Assembly: GCA_024681175.1 (NCBI GenBank)
Contig: JAILBI010000088.1
Span: 1-6,618, forward strand
Length of the DNA: 6,618 nucleotides
Reading direction: 5' to 3'
Source of the DNA: Acholeplasmatales bacterium
GTDB taxonomy: Bacteria > Bacillota_I > Bacilli_A > Acholeplasmatales > Anaeroplasmataceae
The notes under the pieces are model-generated. The model saw only the letters and a list, made by a program, of their open reading frames with translations. It searched no databases and was not told the origin of the DNA. Both the position numbers and the translations under genes were made by a program. Below, one piece after another: positions 1 through 6,618 of this stretch (its first letter is position 1; every line of letters begins with the position of its first letter).

Positions 1-551
1 TGATAAAAAAGCTTATTCCAGATTATTATTTTAAATCAATATACGATATTCCTTATGAAACTTTATATAGTGAAGGTATTAGATTATTACTTTTAGATAT
101 GGATAATACTTTAATATCATATAAAGAAACATTACCTAGTGAAGATTTAAAGGAATTAAAGAAAAAATTAGAAAATATGGGTTTTGAACTTATATTAGTT
201 TCTAATTCCAGAAAAAAGAGAGTTAATAATTTCTGTGATGCATTTGAAATTCCTTATGTTAAATTTTCAATTAAACCTTTAAAAAAAGGTATTAAAAAGG
301 CTATGAAAAAGATAGCTAAGAAAAAATATAAAAAAGAAGAAGTTTTATTACTTGGAGATCAGTTAATGACTGATATTTTTGGTGGTAATAGATGTGGTTT
401 AAAAACAGGCTTAATTGAAGCTATTGATAAATCTACTGATATTGGCCCAACAAGAGCGAATAGAAAGCTTGAAAATTACTTTTTAAAGAGAATTAAGAAG
501 AAATATCCTGATTTATATAATGAAAGATTAAAGGAATATGGTGGTGATTAG
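1..551 (+). CDS. yqeG: YqeG family HAD-superfamily (IIIA) phosphatase; start codon cut by the window edge
   Basis: The frame is open from position 3 (ATA AAA AAG CTT ATT CCA, giving IKKLIPDYYF). Positions 1-2 are TG, so the start codon is almost certainly an NTG whose first base lies one nucleotide before the window. That gives about 183 aa, close to the usual 170-180 aa of YqeG. An internal ATG at 99 falls inside catalytic motif I and cannot be the start. HAD motifs are complete: motif I DMDNT (nucleophile D33, D35), motif II around S68-N69 (LVSNS), motif III K92 (SIKP), and motif IV GDQLMTD (G119-D125). The C-terminal part is lysine-rich. The family is a soluble phosphatase of unsettled substrate, nearly always next to yqeH, which is why a role in ribosome assembly or nucleotide metabolism is suspected. 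Its TAG stop directly abuts the ATG of yqeH. Confidence 0.93.
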   Translation, partial: IKKLIPDYYFKSIYDIPYETLYSEGIRLLLLDMDNTLISYKETLPSEDLKELKKKLENMGFELILVSNSRKKRVNNFCDAFEIPYVKFSIKPLKKGIKKAMKKIAKKKYKKEEVLLLGDQLMTDIFGGNRCGLKTGLIEAIDKSTDIGPTRANRKLENYFLKRIKKKYPDLYNERLKEYGGD

Positions 552-1649
552 ATGATCTTAAGAAAATGTAAAGGCTGTGGAGCTATATTACAAGATGAAG
601 ATGAGAATAAAGCTGGTTTTATTCCTAATCTAACAAAAGAATCTAAATATTGTAAAAGATGTTTTAGATTGATGCATTATAATGAATTACCTAAAATAGT
701 TGCGAAAAATAGCGATTATAAGCATGTTATAGATAATGTTGTTCAAAAGAATGGATTAATAGTTTTTGTTGTAGATATTTTTCAATTCAAATCATCATTT
801 AGTCAAAATATGATTGAAAAATTAAGAAATAAAGATGTTTTATTAGTTGCGAATAAATATGATGTTTTCCCTAAGTCAGTTAAGGTTGAAAATGTTGTTG
901 AATGGTTATCTAAAGAATGTCAAAAATATTCATTTAAGGTTAATGCTATTTCAGTTGTTTCATCTAAATTAGGCTTATATATTGATGATTTAATGAATTT
1001 AATTGATATGTTAAGAAGAGAAAGAGATGTTTATTTTGTTGGTTGTGCTAATGTTGGTAAATCATCTTTAATAAACGCTTTAATTAAAAGAAATACATCA
1101 TTAACTGAAGATGTTATATCTACATCAATCATTCCAGGAACAACTTTAAATGAGATTAGAATTCCATTTTTTGATAATAATAAAGCGTTTATTGATACTC
1201 CAGGTTTGATAAATGAAAATGATATATATCAAACAATTTTAAAAGAAAATTATAATAAAATAATGCCTAGAAATGAAATGAAGCCTAAAACATTCCAAAT
1301 TACTGATGGTAATTCAATTTTCTTGGCAGGCTTAGGATCTATTTCTTTTAGTAATTGTTCAAGAATTTCAGTGATTATTTATTCATCTAATGATTTATAT
1401 ATTCATAGATGTAAAACATCTAATGTTGATAATTTATATCAAACACAAATTGGTAAATTATTAACACCTCCGAGTATAGATGAGGTTCCTAATTTGAAAT
1501 ATAATACTTATCAATATAAATTAGATGGTGAAAAGAAAAAAGCCATTTGGTTTTCTGGCTTTGGTTTCGTTGAAATTATTGGCAAATGTGATTGTTTAGT
1601 TAAAACAATAGATAAAGAGGTTTATTTGACTAATGCAATTATCGGGTAA
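552..1649 (+). CDS. yqeH: Ribosome biogenesis GTPase YqeH (circularly permuted GTPase)
   Basis: 365 aa, full length for YqeH. It starts with a treble-clef zinc finger (C6, C9, C34, C37) and then has the GTPase motifs in circularly permuted order: G4 NKYD (101-104), G5 around SSK (137-139), G1 P-loop GCANVGKS (164-171), G2 PGTT (195-198), G3 DTPG (215-218). The C-terminal region holds the family-typical stretches MKPKTFQ, LLTPPS and WFSGFGFVEI. In Bacillus subtilis YqeH is needed for maturation of the small ribosomal subunit and binds it in a GTP-dependent way; the same cytosolic role is expected here. The purine-rich GGTGGTGATT just before ATG 552 serves as a weak ribosome site, and translational coupling to yqeG (zero spacing) is likely. 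The 3' end overlaps yqeK by 17 nt. Confidence 0.96.
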   Translation: MILRKCKGCGAILQDEDENKAGFIPNLTKESKYCKRCFRLMHYNELPKIVAKNSDYKHVIDNVVQKNGLIVFVVDIFQFKSSFSQNMIEKLRNKDVLLVANKYDVFPKSVKVENVVEWLSKECQKYSFKVNAISVVSSKLGLYIDDLMNLIDMLRRERDVYFVGCANVGKSSLINALIKRNTSLTEDVISTSIIPGTTLNEIRIPFFDNNKAFIDTPGLINENDIYQTILKENYNKIMPRNEMKPKTFQITDGNSIFLAGLGSISFSNCSRISVIIYSSNDLYIHRCKTSNVDNLYQTQIGKLLTPPSIDEVPNLKYNTYQYKLDGEKKKAIWFSGFGFVEIIGKCDCLVKTIDKEVYLTNAIIG

Positions 1650-2205
1650 GGCTTTAAAATTAGTTAGTGAACATTTGAAAGATCATCAAAAAAGATTAAC
1701 ACATATTTTAGGTGTTGCTGAAATGGCTGAAACATTAGCCTTAAGATATAATGTTGATTTAGATAAAGCTAGAAGCTGTGCTTTAATGCATGATTATTCA
1801 AAATATGATTCTTTTGATGATGCTAAAAAATATTTAACTAAAGAAGAATTAGAAGAATGTAATAAATATCCATTTATGTTACATGCATATTTAAGTGCAT
1901 ATAAATATAAAGAATTAATTTGTGATGATGAAGATTCTTTTAATGCAATATATAATCACGTGTTTGGTAGACCAAATATGTCTATTTTAGAAAAGATTAT
2001 TATGATATCAGATTATACTGAAAAAAATAGAACATATCCTGATTGTATAGAAGTTAGAAAAATCCTATTGGATGGAGATTTAGATTTAGCTATTTATGAA
2101 TCTTTAATAAGAACAATAAAACATTGTGAAAGTGAAGGGAAAGTAGCTCATCCAAGACAATTAGAAGTATTAAAGGAATATGAAGAAAGGATTAAAAATA
2201 GATGA
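1633..2205 (+). CDS. yqeK: HD-domain symmetrical Ap4A hydrolase YqeK
   Basis: 190 aa, normal for YqeK. The metal-binding HD-domain residues are all present: H24 (RLTHILGV), H53-D54 (ALMHDYSK), H84 (LHAYLSAY), H109 (NHVFGRP) and D127 (ISDYTE). The GRPNMSILEKI and NRTYP stretches are also family signatures. Characterised members hydrolyse diadenosine tetraphosphate to two ADP with an iron or manganese centre, limiting the Ap4A alarmone. ATG 1633 is the first possible start, because an in-frame TGA lies at 1627-1629; AAAGAGG at 1614-1620 is its ribosome site at slightly long spacing. The gene overlaps the end of yqeH by 17 nt and rsfS by 4 nt, so the operon is translationally coupled. In Bacillus aroE, yhbY and nadD lie between yqeH and yqeK; here they are missing. 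Confidence 0.94.
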   Translation: MQLSGKALKLVSEHLKDHQKRLTHILGVAEMAETLALRYNVDLDKARSCALMHDYSKYDSFDDAKKYLTKEELEECNKYPFMLHAYLSAYKYKELICDDEDSFNAIYNHVFGRPNMSILEKIIMISDYTEKNRTYPDCIEVRKILLDGDLDLAIYESLIRTIKHCESEGKVAHPRQLEVLKEYEERIKNR

Positions 2206-2534
2206 ATTTAGAAGAACTTTTATTAGATGCTTTAGAGAAAGTTAAAGCATATGATGTTATTGTTTATGATATGGAGGATAAAACTCCTTTTTATGATAAG
2301 ATGATAATATCTACAGTTGATTCAGTTAGACAATCTGATAGTGTAGTTTCTTATATCGAAGATAATTTAGAAAACACAGAATATACTATTAGAAGTATTG
2401 AAGGCAAAGGTTCTGGCTGGGTATTAGTTGATTGTAATTCTATTATTGTATCTATTTTCTCTAAAGAAATGAGAGAACATTATTCTTTAGAGAAATTATA
2501 TATGGATATAAAACAAAGAAGAATTGATAATTAA
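2202..2534 (+). CDS. rsfS: Ribosome silencing factor RsfS
   Basis: 110 aa, typical for RsfS/Iojap (Bacillus YqeL). Diagnostic features are the N-terminal helix followed by YDVIVYDMEDKTPFYDKMII (residues 17-36), SVRQSDSVV, the GSGWVLVDC core with W73 (residues 70-78), and the C-terminal REHYSLEKLY block (91-100). RsfS binds ribosomal protein uL14 on the 50S subunit and blocks subunit joining, lowering translation when nutrients run short. ATG 2202 sits in an ATGA overlap with the yqeK stop; AGAAAGGA at 2184-2191 is a good ribosome site. It is the last gene of the operon and is followed within 11 nt by a hairpin terminator. The Bacillus neighbour yqeM does not follow; the DUF3990 module does. 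Confidence 0.95.
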   Translation: MNLEELLLDALEKVKAYDVIVYDMEDKTPFYDKMIISTVDSVRQSDSVVSYIEDNLENTEYTIRSIEGKGSGWVLVDCNSIIVSIFSKEMREHYSLEKLYMDIKQRRIDN

Positions 2535-2539
2535 TTATA

Positions 2540-2566
2540 AAATTGGTATATTTATATACCTTTTTT
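2540..2566 (+). repeat. 27-bp perfect direct repeat, left copy (contains terminator)
   Basis: The 27 nt from AAATTGG through the hairpin and six Ts are identical to 4081-4107. The two copies lie 1541 bp apart and bracket the two-gene module at 2646-3997. The repeat could be a duplication produced when the module was inserted, a homologous-recombination scar, or a terminator sequence this genome uses repeatedly. The window alone cannot separate these. Confidence 0.8.
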
Positions 2567-2567
2567 T
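2545..2567 (+). terminator. Rho-independent terminator of the yqeG-rsfS operon (left copy of a repeat)
   Basis: GGTATATTTATATACC at 2545-2560 forms a 6-7 bp stem with a tiny loop (GGTATA / TATACC), followed by seven Ts at 2561-2567. It starts 10 nt after the rsfS stop. The A-run just upstream (2539-2542) could pair with part of the T-run, so weak bidirectional action is possible. The same sequence recurs at 4086-4107. Confidence 0.85.
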
Positions 2568-2578
2568 ATTTGTCATAA

Positions 2579-2609
2579 AACTTGTTCGTCCATATTGAAC
2601 GAATTAGTT
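2579..2609 (+). promoter_or_regulatory. 31-bp near-palindrome overlapping the module promoter: probable operator
   Basis: The core TTCGTCCATATTGAACGAA (2585-2603) is a dyad with half-site TTCGTtCA; outer arms AACT/AGTT extend the symmetry to 31 bp centred on 2594, with a few mismatched pairs. The right half contains the -35 box TTGAAC (2595-2600), so a bound repressor would block RNA polymerase. The natural candidate is the HTH protein encoded directly downstream. A second copy with 26 of 31 identical positions is at 4028-4058. Confidence 0.7.
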
Positions 2610-2623
2610 AAATATGATAAAAT
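2595..2623 (+). promoter_or_regulatory. Sigma-A-type promoter of the HTH-DUF3990 module
   Basis: TTGAAC at 2595-2600, exactly 17 nt of spacer, then TAAAAT at 2618-2623 with an extended -10 TG at 2615-2616. Predicted transcription start is near 2630, which leaves a very short leader before ATG 2646. Its position shows that a TTG start at 2595 would lie upstream of the transcript. Confidence 0.72.
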
Positions 2624-2645
2624 ATTTTTAGGAAGAAGTGATAAT

Positions 2646-3500
2646 ATGTTAGATTTAACAAATATGGATTTTAATATTAAAGAAGATTTAGAATTTATTT
2701 TAGAGTCAGAAAAAACGGATGTTGAAACATTATCAAAAAATACAACAATATCTAAAACAACAATTAGTGAAATAAGAAAAGGGAAAAGGTGCGAAGATAA
2801 AGTATGTGAAAAATTTTATTCTTATGCATATGATAAAGGCTATAGAATAAATTTAATAAAAGAAGAATTTTTGATTGAATCTAATAAAACTATATTATTT
2901 CATGGCTCAAAAAATGGACTAAATGGTATTTCTTATAAGGGTTCTAGGAAAAGCTGTGATTTTGGTGAAGGATTCTATTTAGGTGAAAAATATGAATCAA
3001 CACTAAGTTTTATTTGTGAACATAGAAATTCTGTTTCTTATTCATTTGAATTGAATCTTGAAGGTTTAAATGTATATAAGTTTAATTGTTCATTAGAATG
3101 GATGTTGGCAATATGTTATTACAGAGGTTTTATAAAAAAATACCTAGATAATGAAATTATATTAGAGATTATAAAAAAAATTAAAGATGCAGATGTAATA
3201 ATTGCACCAATAGCTGATAATAGAATGTTTTATATAATGTCATTATTTTCGAATGGTGATATAACTGAAAATGTAGCAATTCACTCTCTTTCGGCATCAA
3301 ATTTTGGAAATCAATATGTATTAAAAACTCCTAAAGCTATTGAACAATTAAGACCGATTGAAAAGTATTATATTCCACAAAATGAAAAAGAATATTATAT
3401 TGATAAATTAAATCATAGAACTCAAATGATTGAAACCAAATTAAGACTTGCCAAACGAGAGTTTAAAGATGGATTATATATAGAGGAGATATTAAAATGA
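2646..3500 (+). CDS. HTH-DUF3990 fusion: putative ADP-ribosyltransferase with its own DNA-binding domain
   Basis: 284 aa from ATG 2646. The longer TTG frame at 2595 is rejected because it starts in the -35 box and has no ribosome site; AGGAAG at 2630-2635 serves ATG 2646. Residues about 12-48 form an XRE-like helix-turn-helix (ETLSKNT turn TIS then TTISEIRKGKR). Residues about 82-235 resemble DUF3990: LFHGS (H86), GI..KGSR, DFGEGFYLG (Y111), DADVIIAPIADNRMFY, then GNQYVLKT (Q223). HGS, GxGxYx and N(E/Q)YV occur in the order seen in PARP-type ADP-ribosyltransferases, giving an H-Y-Q triad; Q in place of E leaves the reaction type open. The tail (about 235-284) is charged and probably helical. 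No signal peptide or membrane helix. It overlaps gene B by 4 nt. I infer a cytosolic toxin-like transferase that may repress its own promoter. The DUF3990 assignment is from recalled motifs; the target is unknown. Confidence 0.8.
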   Translation: MLDLTNMDFNIKEDLEFILESEKTDVETLSKNTTISKTTISEIRKGKRCEDKVCEKFYSYAYDKGYRINLIKEEFLIESNKTILFHGSKNGLNGISYKGSRKSCDFGEGFYLGEKYESTLSFICEHRNSVSYSFELNLEGLNVYKFNCSLEWMLAICYYRGFIKKYLDNEIILEIIKKIKDADVIIAPIADNRMFYIMSLFSNGDITENVAIHSLSASNFGNQYVLKTPKAIEQLRPIEKYYIPQNEKEYYIDKLNHRTQMIETKLRLAKREFKDGLYIEEILK

Positions 3501-3997
3501 GAGAATTCGATAGTAATGGACTTAGACTAGCTGAATATCAAGGAAAAATATTTGAGTATTCACATGATTTTTTTGATTGTTCTACAAATATTTTTATTAG
3601 AAGATTTGTTCATTCAAATCTATTAAAGAGTATTGATAAAAACGATTCATCGTTATTATCACTTGATCCATATGAAGGTTTAGAAAGCATAAAAGAGCAA
3701 TTTGGTGAAAGTGATTATGGAAGTTTTAAGCAAAACAAAGAAGCTTTATTTTGGGTTGGTTATTTTTATAGATATATATCATACACAAGAAACGTTGACA
3801 CTGTTTTTTTGATGAAAATTTTCGATTATAGAAAAATGTTTGAAGTCTATTATGTTTATCATACACAGGATTTTGAATGGTGTATTGCCGATTTACTAGA
3901 AATATATGGGTACTCAGAAGATATATTTGATCCAAATTATAGATTGAGAATTGCAATTAAAAAATTAAGATTATCAAAAAATGAATGTCAAATATAA
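3497..3997 (+). CDS. Uncharacterised partner protein of the HTH-DUF3990 gene (possible antitoxin or cofactor)
   Basis: 166 aa, soluble and rich in aromatic and charged residues, with no signal peptide or membrane helix. I do not recognise a named domain. Stretches that look conserved-family-like are FDSNGLRLA (4-12), FDCSTNIFIRRF (26-37), YGSFK (74-78), LFWVGYFYRYISYTR (84-98) and YYVYHTQDFEW (118-128). I recall similar hypothetical proteins beside DUF3990 genes in Clostridia, but cannot check this here. ATG 3497 overlaps the upstream TGA (ATGA) and has a strong AGAGGAG site at 3482-3488 with 8-nt spacing, so the pair is made together at high efficiency for gene B. That arrangement fits an antidote or a partner acting in a complex; it could also be an effector or a target-recognition subunit. 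Confidence 0.75.
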   Translation: MREFDSNGLRLAEYQGKIFEYSHDFFDCSTNIFIRRFVHSNLLKSIDKNDSSLLSLDPYEGLESIKEQFGESDYGSFKQNKEALFWVGYFYRYISYTRNVDTVFLMKIFDYRKMFEVYYVYHTQDFEWCIADLLEIYGYSEDIFDPNYRLRIAIKKLRLSKNECQI

Positions 3998-4027
3998 TAC
4001 AATATATTAAACAAACAATCTAATTTA

Positions 4028-4058
4028 AACTTATTCGTCCAATTTGAACGTATAAGTT
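4028..4058 (+). repeat. Second copy of the 31-bp operator-like near-palindrome
   Basis: Centred on 4043, with core CGTCCAATTTGAACG and outer arms AACTTAT/ATAAGTT. Only two pairs of the 15-bp arms are mismatched, so it is more symmetrical than the left copy. It is 26/31 identical to 2579-2609 in direct alignment and 25/31 in inverted alignment, so orientation is almost ambiguous. It starts 30 nt after the stop of gene B and contains a TTGAAC at 4044-4049. Confidence 0.72.
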
Positions 4059-4071
4059 ATCTAATTATTAT
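4044..4071 (+). promoter_or_regulatory. Possible second promoter in the right-hand palindrome, aimed at the terminator
   Basis: TTGAAC (4044-4049), a 16-nt spacer and TATTAT (4066-4071) form a plausible sigma-A promoter with the same -35/operator overlap as the module promoter. Its start point would fall near 4078, only a few nucleotides before the hairpin at 4086. It could yield a very short RNA, read through to the DUF1294 gene, or be non-functional. Confidence 0.35.
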
Positions 4072-4080
4072 TTATAATAT

Positions 4081-4107
4081 AAATTGGTATATTTATATAC
4101 CTTTTTT
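4081..4107 (+). repeat. 27-bp perfect direct repeat, right copy (contains terminator)
   Basis: Identical over 27 nt to 2540-2566. With the left copy it brackets the two-gene module and both palindromes in the order terminator, palindrome, genes, palindrome, terminator. Confidence 0.8.
4086..4107 (+). terminator. Rho-independent terminator behind the module (right copy of repeat)
   Basis: The hairpin GGTATATTTATATACC (4086-4101) is followed by six Ts (4102-4107) and, after one A, another T-run. It is identical to the rsfS terminator at 2545-2567 apart from the T-run length. It should end transcription of the HTH-DUF3990 operon and isolate it from the promoter immediately downstream. Confidence 0.83.
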
Positions 4108-4118
4108 ATTTTTTAGTA

Positions 4119-4127
4119 TGTTATAAT
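4119..4127 (+). promoter_or_regulatory. Extended -10 promoter for the DUF1294 gene
   Basis: TGTTATAAT (TG at 4119-4120, TATAAT at 4122-4127) is a consensus extended -10 element. No good -35 box lies 16-18 nt upstream, where the sequence is the terminator T-run; the TG extension often compensates for this. Predicted start is near 4134, 28 nt before ATG 4162. Confidence 0.6.
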
Positions 4128-4161
4128 AAAATATGTAATTAATTTTGAAAAGAGGAAAAAT

Positions 4162-4461
4162 ATGAAAACATCATTATTATTGTTAATTATTTATATTGCT
4201 TATTTAGCATTATTTTCACTATGTGCTCTTTTCTTATTTTTCAAAGATAAGAAAATGGCTAAAAATGGTGGTGGAGCAGTTAGAATTAAAGAAAAAACAT
4301 TATTATCAGTTTGTGCTTTAGGTGGCGCAATAGGTGGATTTTTTGGTAGAATTTTAGCACACCACAAGACTGATAAAATTTATTTTTCAATGACTATTTA
4401 TTTTTCATTATTACTAGAAATTGGTGTTTTAGCAGTAATGATTTATTTTGCATTTATTTAA
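4162..4461 (+). CDS. DUF1294 family small membrane protein
   Basis: 99 aa. A hydrophobic helix at about residues 3-27 ends in FFKDKKMAKNGG, followed by RIKEKTLL, a glycine-rich segment LGGAIGGFFGR (about 53-63), LAHHKTDKIYF and a C-terminal hydrophobic helix (about 78-98). The order hydrophobic helix, DK.KAK, R(I)xEKTL, LGGxxGxxxG, HKT matches DUF1294 (as in Bacillus YsdA), an integral membrane family of unknown function. AGAGGA at 4151-4156 is the ribosome site, 5 nt before ATG 4162. It is the first gene after the promoter at 4119-4127 and is followed after 13 nt by another small membrane protein, whose SD overlaps this gene's stop. Confidence 0.85.
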   Translation: MKTSLLLLIIYIAYLALFSLCALFLFFKDKKMAKNGGGAVRIKEKTLLSVCALGGAIGGFFGRILAHHKTDKIYFSMTIYFSLLLEIGVLAVMIYFAFI

Positions 4462-4474
4462 GGAGGTATAGGCG

Positions 4475-4681
4475 ATGAAATCATCTTTAGAAAAATCTCA
4501 TTCAAAAGCTTCTAATTTTAAATTAACTTTAATTTGTTTATTAACAGCACTTGGTGCGAGTGTTGCTTGGTTAGGTGTTTGTTTAATACCTCATTATCAA
4601 ACATTTGGCATTATTTTAGCCTCTATTGGTGGAGTTGTAGCATTATTATTTATGTTTTTAATAGGAAAATTTACAAGATAA
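4475..4681 (+). CDS. Small two-helix membrane protein of unknown function
   Basis: 68 aa. A short basic, polar N-terminus (MKSSLEKSHSKASNFK) precedes two hydrophobic helices at about 17-38 and 43-64, separated by IPHYQTFG; the end is GKFTR. With positive charge at both ends, a hairpin topology with both termini inside is likely. I recognise no family. It is clearly a real gene: a perfect AGGAGGT (4461-4467) lies 7 nt before ATG 4475. The last A of the DUF1294 stop codon is also the first base of this SD, so the two genes form one operon with coupled translation. Confidence 0.75.
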   Translation: MKSSLEKSHSKASNFKLTLICLLTALGASVAWLGVCLIPHYQTFGIILASIGGVVALLFMFLIGKFTR

Positions 4682-4711
4682 ATTAAGTTTTCCTTCTGGA
4701 TGTGGTAGTTT

Positions 4712-5365
4712 ATGAGTAGGACCAAAAGAAGAATTCTTTCTATTATTTTTAATTTAATATTAATATTAACAGAATTAAGAGCGATACAATTATCTTTTTT
4801 TGATGGTAGTAAAAGAACTTGGGAATTCTTAAAGTATTATACTCAAGATTGTAATATATTCTTGTTAATTACTAGTGTAGTTTATGTTTTTGAATTAATA
4901 AGATGTATTATTATGAAAAAGGATGTTAGTAAAGTAGTTCATATTTTTAGATTTGCATCAATGGGTGCGGCTATGACTACATTTTTGATTGTTGGTTTAA
5001 TATTTACACCTGTTTTAATGGATTTATCTTCATATATTGGAGCGTCATTTTATTTCCATTTTTTATGCCCTTTATTAGGCATTATTACATTTTATTTATT
5101 TGATGAAGGATGTATGATTAAGCTTACTCATATTAATTATTCATTTTTCTTTACTTTAGGTTACGCAATTGTTTTACCTATATTAGTAGGTTTTAATATT
5201 GTTACACCACCATATCCTTTTTTAGATGTTGAAAATCAACATTTTATGTTATCAATAATGTACGCACTTGTAGTTCCTGGAATAGCATATGGTGTATTAA
5301 CTATAATTAAGCTTACTTATAATGTTCTTAACTTTAAGAGAATTGGTAATACAGTTATTGAGTAA
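4712..5365 (+). CDS. Six-helix membrane protein, Pr6Pr-like
   Basis: 217 aa with hydrophobic segments at about 8-28, 47-66, 78-101, 112-130, 142-163 and 179-202. The pattern WEFLKYYTQDCNIF (37-50) after helix 1, RFASMGAAMTTFLIVGLIF (80-98), FYFHFLCPLLG with H116, and PPYPF (166-170) resembles bacterial Pr6Pr proteins, a six-helix group related to eukaryotic AIG1/FAR-17a hydrolases. Catalytic function in the bacterial members is not established, and the assignment rests on pattern only. ATG 4712 is the first possible start, as an in-frame TAG lies at 4706-4708. The ribosome site is poor (TGGATGTGGTAG), in contrast to the strong sites of its neighbours. The gap from the preceding gene is only 30 nt with no terminator or promoter seen, so it is probably the third gene of the DUF1294 operon. 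Confidence 0.78.
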   Translation: MSRTKRRILSIIFNLILILTELRAIQLSFFDGSKRTWEFLKYYTQDCNIFLLITSVVYVFELIRCIIMKKDVSKVVHIFRFASMGAAMTTFLIVGLIFTPVLMDLSSYIGASFYFHFLCPLLGIITFYLFDEGCMIKLTHINYSFFFTLGYAIVLPILVGFNIVTPPYPFLDVENQHFMLSIMYALVVPGIAYGVLTIIKLTYNVLNFKRIGNTVIE

Positions 5366-5385
5366 TTTTAACAAATTTGTAAAAA
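5366..5385. promoter_or_regulatory. 20-bp palindrome at the -35 of the diguanylate cyclase gene: possible operator
   Basis: TTTTAACAAATTTGTAAAAA is symmetrical except for one A/A pair, with a perfect 8-bp core CAAATTTG (5372-5379). It overlaps the -35 box TTGTAA (5377-5382). Low sequence complexity makes chance occurrence possible. Confidence 0.35.
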
Positions 5386-5405
5386 TGATTAATTAGTGAT
5401 ATAAT
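5377..5405 (+). promoter_or_regulatory. Sigma-A-type promoter of the diguanylate cyclase gene
   Basis: TTGTAA (5377-5382), a 17-nt spacer and perfect TATAAT (5400-5405), with an extended -10 TG at 5397-5398. Predicted start is near 5412, about 23 nt before ATG 5435. This separates the gene from the upstream membrane-protein operon, although no terminator is seen between them. Confidence 0.72.
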
Positions 5406-5434
5406 GATTTTTGTTTTGTAAAGGGGTGAATCAA

Positions 5435-6613
5435 ATGATATTAGAATCAACAGGCATGTCATTTTATTCTGTAATATGTATATATTGTGCTTTAATATTA
5501 GGTTTTATTCTTTACAAATTTATAAAAGATACAAATCTTGCAAAATCATATAAAATAATTGTAATTTTAGCAATTTCAACTCAAATTGTATTATTTATCG
5601 CTGATGCTTTTGGTAATTTTATAAACGTTGGTAAATTTAATTGGGGAAAAGATATTAATGCTGTAATCCATTTTGTTTATTTTACTGGGTTAGGGGCAAC
5701 TTGTTATTTTGGTTATTTATTACTTGAGTGTATAGATGATTCAGCATTATATAAAAATAAAAAATTAAGATATTCGTCACTTTCTCTTGTTATTTTATTG
5801 GTTATAATCTCCTTTATTTCTATGATTTTAGTATTTTCTGGTAGTGATTTCCATTTCCTTTATTACATGACTGAAGATGGAAAATATGCTAGAGGAGATT
5901 TCAATTTTATGCAAATTGTATGCTCTTTTGCATATTTATTGATAGAATTAATTCATGGTTTATATGGTTTATTTGTTAAGAAAAATTATGCTAAATTTGG
6001 CACATATAAATATATGATTTTATATGTATTTATTATAGCGATAGGTGTTACTTTACAAATGGTTTTTTCTAAATATCCATTTACAGAAATGGCTTTAACT
6101 GTTGATTCTATTTTAATTTATAATTTATTACTTCAAGAACAAGTTTTAACAGATGGTTTAACTAGAGTTTATAATAGAAATGCGCTTTATAAGCATTTAG
6201 AGACTGTAATGATTAAATCAAATAATAATTTATATTTATTTATGATTGATTTAGATGGCTTTAAAGCTATAAATGATATATATGGTCATACAGAAGGTGA
6301 TGAAGCTTTAAAATATTTTTCAGTTGCCTTACGTAATTTTTCTATTAAAACAGGATCATTTATATGTAGATATGGTGGAGATGAATTCACTGTTGTTTCA
6401 GAAGTAGAAGATGAAGATTTTAATGATTTTATAAGACAATTTGATAATATAGTTATTGATGCTAATGATAGAGCTCAAAGACAATTTAAAATTGAAATGT
6501 CTTATGGTTATACTAAATATGATTATTTAAAGCATACAAGTGCGATTGATTTAATTAATCAAGCAGATGAGATGCTTTATATAAGAAAAAATGAAAAGAA
6601 GAGCTTAAGATAA
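5435..6613 (+). CDS. Membrane-anchored GGDEF diguanylate cyclase
   Basis: 392 aa from ATG 5435, preceded by a strong AAAGGGGTG site (5420-5428). An in-frame TTG at 5411 would begin at the transcription start and is rejected. Seven hydrophobic segments (about 8-30, 40-60, 76-98, 114-135, 156-180, 192-212, 217-235) form an uncharacterised membrane sensor. The GGDEF domain runs from about 238 to 387: LTDGLTRVYNRNAL, then MIDLDGFKAIND with metal ligand D272 and N280/D281 for the guanine, then RYGGDEF with intact GGDEF at 314-318, then MSYGY and the QADEMLY end. It should condense two GTP into cyclic di-GMP at the membrane. The usual RxxD inhibitory site five residues before GGDEF reads KTGS, so product feedback at that site is probably absent. 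No EAL domain. Confidence 0.92.
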   Translation: MILESTGMSFYSVICIYCALILGFILYKFIKDTNLAKSYKIIVILAISTQIVLFIADAFGNFINVGKFNWGKDINAVIHFVYFTGLGATCYFGYLLLECIDDSALYKNKKLRYSSLSLVILLVIISFISMILVFSGSDFHFLYYMTEDGKYARGDFNFMQIVCSFAYLLIELIHGLYGLFVKKNYAKFGTYKYMILYVFIIAIGVTLQMVFSKYPFTEMALTVDSILIYNLLLQEQVLTDGLTRVYNRNALYKHLETVMIKSNNNLYLFMIDLDGFKAINDIYGHTEGDEALKYFSVALRNFSIKTGSFICRYGGDEFTVVSEVEDEDFNDFIRQFDNIVIDANDRAQRQFKIEMSYGYTKYDYLKHTSAIDLINQADEMLYIRKNEKKSLR

Positions 6614-6618
6614 ATATT

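What the first reader, a model, noticed from the sequence alone, without database searches (positions are those of the whole stretch)
2579..4107. Compact HTH-ADP-ribosyltransferase (DUF3990-like) plus unknown partner: a candidate toxin-antitoxin or defence unit
Seen: two genes overlapping by ATGA, their own promoter with an operator-like dyad in the -35, and their own terminator, set as a self-contained cassette behind a conserved ribosome operon. Gene A joins a helix-turn-helix to a domain with HGS, GEGFYLG and NQYV motifs in PARP order. Established: DUF3990-like and other ADP-ribosyltransferases often act as toxins, and such toxins are commonly paired with a co-encoded neutraliser. Inference: gene A is effector and autoregulator in one chain, and gene B is antidote, adaptor or target selector. 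Placing DNA binding on the enzyme rather than on the antitoxin would be an unusual arrangement.
Basis: partly seen in the sequence, partly recalled or inferred. Interest (0 to 1): 0.78.

Follow-up and report, generated by a model that had tools for sequence, protein, structure and literature searches.

The report
Jumping toxin-like gene pair in bacteria
Two partner genes, one joining a DNA-binding head to a toxin-type enzyme, form a small movable unit that sits between two copies of its own control site and is missing from the same spot in a close relative; it is probably a self-controlled toxin or anti-virus module that spreads as a tiny cassette.

Summary
Gene A (2646-3500) is an Xre-type HTH joined to a DUF3990 ADP-ribosyltransferase (ART) domain. 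H86 is kept in 65 of 65 aligned relatives, Y111 and Q223 in 64 of 65. Gene B (3497-3997) is its all-helical partner. PADLOC lists the pair as the phage-defence candidate PDC-M42. B follows A in 73 of 73 non-viral loci where A has the HTH and there is room (near-duplicates included).

(1) The operator palindrome (P) occurs in A's promoter and again after B; across relatives the two copies change together. Another branch has two operators in tandem upstream; no locus scored as both. (2) The unit is mobile: a relative (YqeH 98%, DNA 88-91%) has this locus with no cassette and no P, and its single rsfS terminator is duplicated around the insert in the window. Two other genomes keep a lone P where a sister carries the cassette. 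(3) The HTH sits on A (73 loci) or on B's C-terminus (12), never on both.

Best reading: a self-repressed ART toxin with partner/antitoxin, probably anti-phage, moving as a transposase-less cassette. Toxicity, neutralisation, defence and the mover are untested.

The parts
2540..2571 (+). copy 1 of the rsfS intrinsic-terminator-like hairpin plus T run; left half of the target duplication
   Evidence: 32-nt direct repeat with 4081-4112, 94% identical; single in G421
2578..2610 (.). P1, imperfect 33-nt palindrome, presumed operator of gene A's HTH
   Evidence: core at 2580; dyad 10 of 14; same kind of palindrome upstream of A in relatives
2595..2623 (+). promoter-like -35 TTGAAC (inside P1) and -10 TAAAAT, spacing 17, TG before the -10
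   Evidence: consensus match only
2646..3500 (+). gene A: HTH (residues about 5-77) plus DUF3990 ART domain (82-242) plus C-terminal helix
2901..2903 (+). codon of H86 (HGS motif)
   Evidence: 65 of 65 aligned relatives
2976..2978 (+). codon of Y111 (GFYLG motif)
   Evidence: 64 of 65
3312..3314 (+). codon of Q223 (NQYV motif)
   Evidence: 64 of 65
3497..3997 (+). gene B: all-helical partner, PADLOC PDC-M42B family, weak DUF3791 relation
4027..4059 (.). P2, second copy of the operator palindrome, after gene B
   Evidence: core at 4029, dyad 12 of 14; identity to P1 0.85 over 33 nt
4081..4112 (+). copy 2 of the rsfS terminator; right half of the target duplication, now also placed to terminate the A-B operon
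2572..4080 (.). inserted unit (P1-A-B-P2) absent from the orthologous locus of G421
   Evidence: window 1-2571 = L277 2402-4974 at 91.1%, window 4078-6618 = L277 4940-7492 at 88.1%

Best explanation
The unit is an autoregulated two-gene ART module of the PADLOC PDC-M42 type that travels as a small non-autonomous cassette. Gene A binds its own operator P through its HTH and represses the operon. Its ART domain uses NAD+ either to modify a target or to destroy NAD+. Gene B binds A in a complex that holds the enzyme in check and/or decides when it acts, most likely in response to phage infection. Two operators per module give tight, cooperative repression: in tandem in one branch, bracketing the operon here. 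The unit P-A-B-P inserted next to the rsfS terminator, duplicating about 32 bp of it. In relatives, recombination between the two P copies removes the cassette and leaves one P behind. SHOWN here by sequence: ART family and conserved motif residues, constant pairing, operator pairing and co-variation, an empty ortholog of the window's site with a single terminator, solo-P relatives, HTH carried by one partner only. INFERRED: that the empty site is the older state, repression by A at P, A-B complex, toxicity, neutralisation, anti-phage role, loss by P x P recombination. UNKNOWN: what moves the unit, and the target of A.
For: ART: Pfam DUF3990. By title, 49 of the 50 VIA-align rows shown for the AF2 model (pLDDT 95.6) are ART, RES or diphtheria-type enzymes, led by MbcT 6.8 and ParT 6.7. 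The PDB profile search finds Xre regulators at the N-terminus (E from 3.4e-5) and, weakly (E 0.48 and up), tankyrases for 68-124. Pairing: 73 of 73 non-viral HTH-A loci with room. Candidate defence family: PDC-M42A and B; PDC-M42B in 50 of 56 B proteins. Operators: in 14 loci chosen for having a P2, own P1-P2 identity 0.90 against 0.63 permuted, 0 of 20000 permutations as high. 16 bracket, 13 tandem, 0 both, 24 neither of 53 loci. Each arrangement needs one change on the tree, against shuffled means of 9.4 and 9.2. Insertion. Solo P: L059 against L057 and L056 against L004. HTH: 73 on A, 12 on B, 0 on both, 2 on neither. B carries GNAT, pyrophosphatase-like or ASCH domains in 6 of 8 long forms scanned, some below the Pfam cut-off.
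Against: No activity of A or B has been measured. B's fold matches nothing in PDB or BFVD, so 'antitoxin' rests on gene order, pairing and the HTH swap. B keeps invariant residues (F19, S40, G88, H122), which may mean an active role. The third motif residue is Q, not the E of PARPs (the PARP motif is recalled). Foldseek gave no row at E<=0.001, and VIA Z stays under 8. In viral contigs L228-L231, A stands without a detectable B. 24 of 53 loci show neither operator arrangement at the threshold; 4 of 17 in the bracket clade lack a P2 call, and the 26 unlabelled rows do not count in the one-change result, whose branch support is only 67/72. L002's own P2 ranks eighth, not first. In the two solo-P pairs the right-hand junction is not clean: 32 against 71 nt and 488 against 146 nt unaligned. 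G383 and G341 carry a solo P but no A homologue. The terminator copies in the window do not by themselves tell gain in the window from loss in G421.
Confidence: 0.6

Rival explanations
1. B is not an antidote but a co-effector, sensor or target selector: A and B act only as a complex that is inert until triggered.
For: Several B residues are invariant or nearly so in 56 sequences; B is extended by GNAT, pyrophosphatase-like or ASCH domains in 6 of 8 long relatives scanned, which looks like sensing or enzymatic equipment; no toxicity data exist.
Against: ATGA-coupled partner placed beside an ART enzyme, and the HTH of the pair can sit on B (12 loci), as on the antitoxin of Xre-RES (PMC12204516, abstract and discussion read).
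Confidence: 0.25
2. A is a transcriptional regulator whose ART domain is only an NAD+/ADP-ribose sensor, not a toxin.
For: HTH and ART on one chain; the third motif residue is Q; operators are conserved and co-vary.
Against: H86 65/65, Y111 64/65, Q223 64/65 suggest a working site; the ART domain also occurs without any HTH on its chain while its partner is kept (14 loci, 12 of them with the HTH on B); DUF3990 is the C-terminal domain of a putative T6SS Rhs effector, Rhs5 of Serratia (PMC4524185, passage read).
Confidence: 0.12
3. P2 is simply a terminator or a chance leftover, not a second operator.
For: In 8 of 9 ACTTGTT-type loci P2 (folded with AA and TTTT added by me) gives a hairpin of -7.4 to -13.8 kcal/mol, and it lies at the end of B.
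Against: P2 tracks the sequence of its own P1, including asymmetric interiors, through a clade in which P changed greatly; T runs after P2 are short; L002's P2 barely folds (-0.6).
Confidence: 0.15
4. The window did not gain the cassette after the split; it was there in the common ancestor and G421 lost it by recombination between the two terminator copies.
For: A 32-bp direct repeat could recombine; sister genomes elsewhere seem to lose cassettes. That both window copies differ from G421 by the same base fits either order.
Against: The two window copies are still 30 of 32 identical although the flanks of the two genomes are 9-12% apart. Even on this reading the duplicated terminator marks an insertion, only an older one. 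No P anywhere in G421 at up to 3 mismatches.
Confidence: 0.25

Closest known systems
PADLOC PDC-M42 (phage-defence candidate)
   Same: Both genes match (A 6.2e-14 to PDC-M42A, B 3.3e-8 to PDC-M42B)
   Different: The best PDC-M42A hit covers only the ART part (residues 80-266); I found no paper on PDC-M42 and none describing these operators, the HTH swap or the mobility in searches, of which I saw listings and opened some papers
RES-Xre / MbcTA / ParST / NatRT toxin-antitoxin systems
   Same: ART-like NAD+-using enzyme plus partner, Xre-type HTH, autoregulated palindromic promoter; closest fold rows; Xre-RES of P. putida has two DNA-binding dimers and probably a second promoter site (PMC12204516, abstract and discussion)
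   Different: There the HTH is on the antitoxin; here on the enzyme. A matches DUF3990, not the RES family; B matches no known antitoxin family or fold above cut-off
DarTG and CmdTAC
   Same: ADP-ribosyltransferase effectors in anti-phage or toxin-antitoxin modules
   Different: B is all-helical, not a macrodomain (DarG recalled); two genes, no chaperone third gene as in CmdTAC (PMC11618068, abstract and passages)
Xer-bracketed 'dif modules' of Acinetobacter
   Same: Small gene modules between two short recombination sites, using the host's recombinase (starts of abstracts in the listing, which speak of resistance modules; that some carry toxin-antitoxin pairs is recalled)
   Different: P looks like the module's own operator, differs between clades, and insertion duplicates host DNA
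Non-autonomous mobile elements such as mobile insertion cassettes (recalled)
   Same: Passenger genes between end repeats, target duplication, no transposase
   Different: The duplication is about 32 bp and covers a terminator; no transposon inverted repeats recognised

Membership tests
DUF3990 / ART superfamily | Pfam PF13151 above its cut-off | tested here: met
   106.2 bits against 32.2
DUF3990 / ART superfamily | ART fold | tested here: met
DUF3990 / ART superfamily | conserved H and Y of an H-Y-x site | tested here: met
   H86 65/65, Y111 64/65; third residue Q223 64/65. The assignment as a site is by motif, recalled from PARPs
DUF3990 / ART superfamily | ADP-ribosyltransferase or NADase activity | not testable with these tools
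   no assay
PADLOC PDC-M42 | adjacent genes matching PDC-M42A and PDC-M42B | tested here: met
PADLOC PDC-M42 | protection against phage | not testable with these tools
   no paper naming it found
Type II toxin-antitoxin system | two-gene operon with promoter palindrome | tested here: met
Type II toxin-antitoxin system | DNA-binding domain on the antitoxin | tested here: not met
   the HTH is on the enzyme in the window and 72 other loci; on B in 12 other loci
Type II toxin-antitoxin system | toxicity of A and neutralisation by B | not testable with these tools
   no assay
RES-Xre | RES family toxin | tested here: not met
   Pfam gives DUF3990 and a weak HTH, no RES hit up to E=1
RES-Xre | Xre domain on the antitoxin | tested here: not met
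   for the window
DarTG | macrodomain partner | tested here: not met
   B is all-helical with no macrodomain hit
CmdTAC | third gene, SecB-like chaperone | tested here: not met
   only A and B lie on the coding strand of the inserted unit
Transposon / insertion sequence | target duplication at an otherwise intact site | tested here: met
   about 32 nt; one site
Transposon / insertion sequence | transposase or integrase in the unit | tested here: not met
   no other ORF of 60 aa or more on the coding strand, one of 76 aa on the other strand inside B; A and B are not recombinases
Xer dif module | XerC/XerD sites at both ends | not tested
   P was not compared with the host's dif

The most novel reading that the evidence does not exclude
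A minimal mobile defence/toxin cassette whose two ends are copies of its own operator: the HTH enzyme (or the A-B complex) binds both ends. It silences the operon in a 1.4-kb loop and marks or protects the ends for insertion at transcription terminators and for clean loss, with a recombinase supplied in trans. The control site of the toxin would then double as the end of the mobile unit.
Probability: 0.2. Interest if true: 0.85.

Novelty: new variant of a known kind. Interest (0 to 1): 0.62.

Why it matters
A defence candidate on which I found no paper has relatives in many genomes (matches at E<=1e-10 in 35 of 395 genomes of the class of a Bacilli genome and 23 of 391 of the class of a Ruminococcus genome). 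It gains an anatomy that can be tested at once: conserved motif residues to mutate, two operators to probe, a partner to co-express. It also shows a toxin-like pair moving as a 1.5-kb unit without a transposase, with an empty, an occupied and a solo-operator state all visible among relatives. How such small modules spread is an open question. The HTH moving between the two partners is a natural clue that the two proteins work as one complex.

Tried and rejected
Phages and plasmids: neither protein found in either collection; single-sequence viral scans found no relative; the alignment scan found 12 viral loci, distant. Reading P as a mobile site because G383 and G341 diverge exactly at P: rejected, since the wider comparison shows a large rearrangement that includes ribosomal-protein-like genes (by eye). 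P hits L041 and L042 lie in a coding sequence with 2 mismatches and were set aside as chance. Ancestral state at the Y-polymerase and hflX sites: among the loci of other family members no P was found, but synteny was not shown, so this decides little. The automatic P1 pick was too noisy and was not used; the P strings were picked by me from earlier outputs and located by script. In one search the row L112 was parsed wrongly (its 'B' is gene A): that row's B hits are void and it was left out; L121 lacked a B there for want of room. L014 and L119 pass the bracket threshold by only 0.5 and were counted as 'neither' in the tree (bracket 14). Of the 52 matches the 7 weakest (E over 1e-14) were not fetched; one search also left out L001 and L003 (same genes as L099, L100), L018 (cut off) and L204 (same as L005). 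The Foldseek viral search for B gave nothing. The 52-bp repeat around the cassette in L069 was followed to G404 and G414: G414 carries the gene too and G404 has other short genes there, so it is no virgin site.

Full report
WHAT IS THERE. The 6.6-kb window carries a yqeG-like gene, yqeH, yqeK and rsfS, then genes A and B, then a DUF1294 membrane gene and further membrane genes ending with a GGDEF protein. A and B overlap by ATGA. A is an HTH plus a DUF3990 domain (Pfam E 1.6e-30). B matches no Pfam family above cut-off, but matches PADLOC PDC-M42B, while A matches PDC-M42A. PDC names are phage-defence candidates; [quoted passage not shown] No paper in the library holds the name PDC-M42. DUF3990 appears in four papers; in the two I opened it is a member of the ART clan (PMC7955679, passage) and the C-terminal domain of a putative Serratia T6SS Rhs effector (PMC4524185, passage).

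THE PAIR. With HMMs built from the two alignments, B follows A in 73 of 73 non-viral loci (window included) in which A carries the HTH and there is room; one more (L212) is cut off. The counts include near-duplicates such as L005/L006, L010-L016 and L070/L071; rows left out are told under Tried and rejected. In four viral contigs with room (L228-L231) an HTH-A has no detectable B. Of eight long forms of B scanned, six hit a GNAT, pyrophosphatase-like or ASCH model in the C-terminal part; both pyrophosphatase hits and one ASCH hit are below the Pfam cut-off.

THE HTH SWITCHES PARTNERS. Where A lacks the HTH, B usually has an Xre HTH at its C-terminus: 12 loci, nine in genomes of the class of G005 and three in viral contigs, near-duplicates included. 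HTH on A only: 73. On both: 0. On neither, with B present: 2. A without an adjacent B: 12, of which 8 with an HTH and 4 without; several are cut by contig ends. Pfam HTH_3 confirms the C-terminal HTH in three such B proteins, and for two partner A proteins PDC-M42A is the best PADLOC hit. These are few independent events, not 85; but a DNA-binding domain that may ride on either chain suggests that the chains form one complex.

TWO OPERATORS. P1 lies in the promoter. In the nine first relatives (51-64% identity) the pattern ACTTGTTNGTNCAANNTGNACNNACAAGT, up to 3 mismatches, occurs only at the cassette: two sites in six genomes, one in three, and none for the reversed control. Of 53 A-B loci, 16 have a matching copy after B (bracket), 13 have two copies in tandem upstream of A, none has both, 24 have neither at the threshold (two bracket calls are marginal). 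In 14 bracket loci, chosen because they have a P2, own P1-P2 identity averages 0.904 against 0.632 permuted (0 of 20000), and the own P2 ranks first in 13 of 14. On the tree of 53 A proteins each arrangement is one side of a branch (support 67/72, 68% of bootstrap trees; shuffled means 9.4 and 9.2, 0 of 500 as low; 26 unlabelled rows not counted), and a clade of 17 (100/99) holds 13 of the 14 brackets. The sequence of P changes greatly within that clade while P1 and P2 stay alike, so P2 is either kept by selection for the same binder or homogenised. Xre-RES of P. putida has two DNA-binding dimers and probably uses a second promoter site (PMC12204516, abstract and discussion).

INSERTION. The closest genome found (G421, YqeH 98%) has the same locus without the cassette: window 1-2571 matches L277 2402-4974 at 91.1%, window 4078-6618 matches L277 4940-7492 at 88.1%. 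The terminator behind rsfS is single there and double in the window, on both sides of the unit; both window copies differ from G421 by the same missing base, which fits gain in the window or loss in G421. G421 has no P at up to 3 mismatches; it has a distant A homologue (40%) elsewhere. So about 1.5 kb, P-A-B-P, entered this site with a target duplication of about 32 nt, most simply in the window's lineage. Similar repeats flank relatives: 94 nt at 91% in L065, 52 of 52 in L069, 153 nt at 94% in L108, others weaker; those were not proved to be target duplications.

SOLO OPERATORS. In 395 genomes of the class of G001, 9 have P at up to 2 mismatches; the reversed control found none in the 395. 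Two are cassette genomes (G001, G003); the other seven (G060, G096, G301, G324, G341, G383, G392) have P without an A or B gene within the 1.5 kb held or the 3-6 kb fetched later for all but G324; in G096 and G301 the contig ends near P, so one side is unseen. In G324 another A-B pair with a different operator lies about 6 kb away. Five of the seven hold A homologues elsewhere, two hold none. In a family of 55 genomes P occurs in 6 at up to 3 mismatches; there the control gave one hit, in G331. Two lone sites have an occupied counterpart: L059 (G392) against L057 (G404), P identical 33 of 33, left flank colinear through P at 84%, right flank again from the polymerase start at 80%; and L056 (G324) against L004 (G004), P2 identical 35 of 35 to the lone P, flanks 76-80%. 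The right-hand junctions are not clean (32 against 71 nt, 488 against 146 nt without alignment). By eye, in the printed sequences, many of these sites follow an intrinsic-terminator-like hairpin; this was not counted.

HOW IT PROBABLY WORKS. A and B form a complex; the HTH tethers it to P and represses the operon; two operators tighten this. When the complex is disturbed, most likely by phage, the ART domain acts. Everything in these two sentences is inference from families and anatomy. As a unit it enters terminator sites with a target duplication (seen once, in the window) and can be lost leaving one P (inferred from two pairs). The mover is unknown; no recombinase lies in the unit.

VERDICT. 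Not an artefact and not ordinary, but a variant of known kinds: a PDC-M42 ART pair, arranged as an operator-bracketed mobile cassette.

Noticed in passing
L217-L223, L226, L235-L237 (and a second system in L214): HTH-less DUF3990 protein followed by a B-like protein with a C-terminal Xre HTH: the DNA-binding domain has changed chains.
   Followed up: yes
L228, L229, L230, L231 (viral contigs): HTH-DUF3990 proteins of viral contigs without a detectable B partner.
   Followed up: partly
L066-L069, L111, L119, L130, L132: Long B proteins: six of these eight hit GNAT, pyrophosphatase-like or ASCH models in the C-terminal part, L111 both GNAT and pyrophosphatase-like. Seven further long B proteins (L108, L109, L115, L118, L123, L127, L134) were not scanned.
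   Followed up: partly
L284, about 2438-2699 (G404): At the site where G392 and G414 carry an A gene behind a cysteine-synthase-like gene (by eye), G404 has a short gene with two tandem operator-like repeats (looks like a Phd/YefM antitoxin, by eye): a possible toxin-antitoxin hotspot.
   Followed up: no
G383:C5:18214 and G341:C4:36520 (L060, L061): Perfect P palindrome upstream of an FMN-oxidoreductase-like gene (by eye) in two genomes that have no A homologue; meaning unknown.
   Followed up: partly
L100 (G003): A degenerate copy of the upstream gene's 3' end (looks like rpsR, by eye) lies downstream of the cassette.
   Followed up: no
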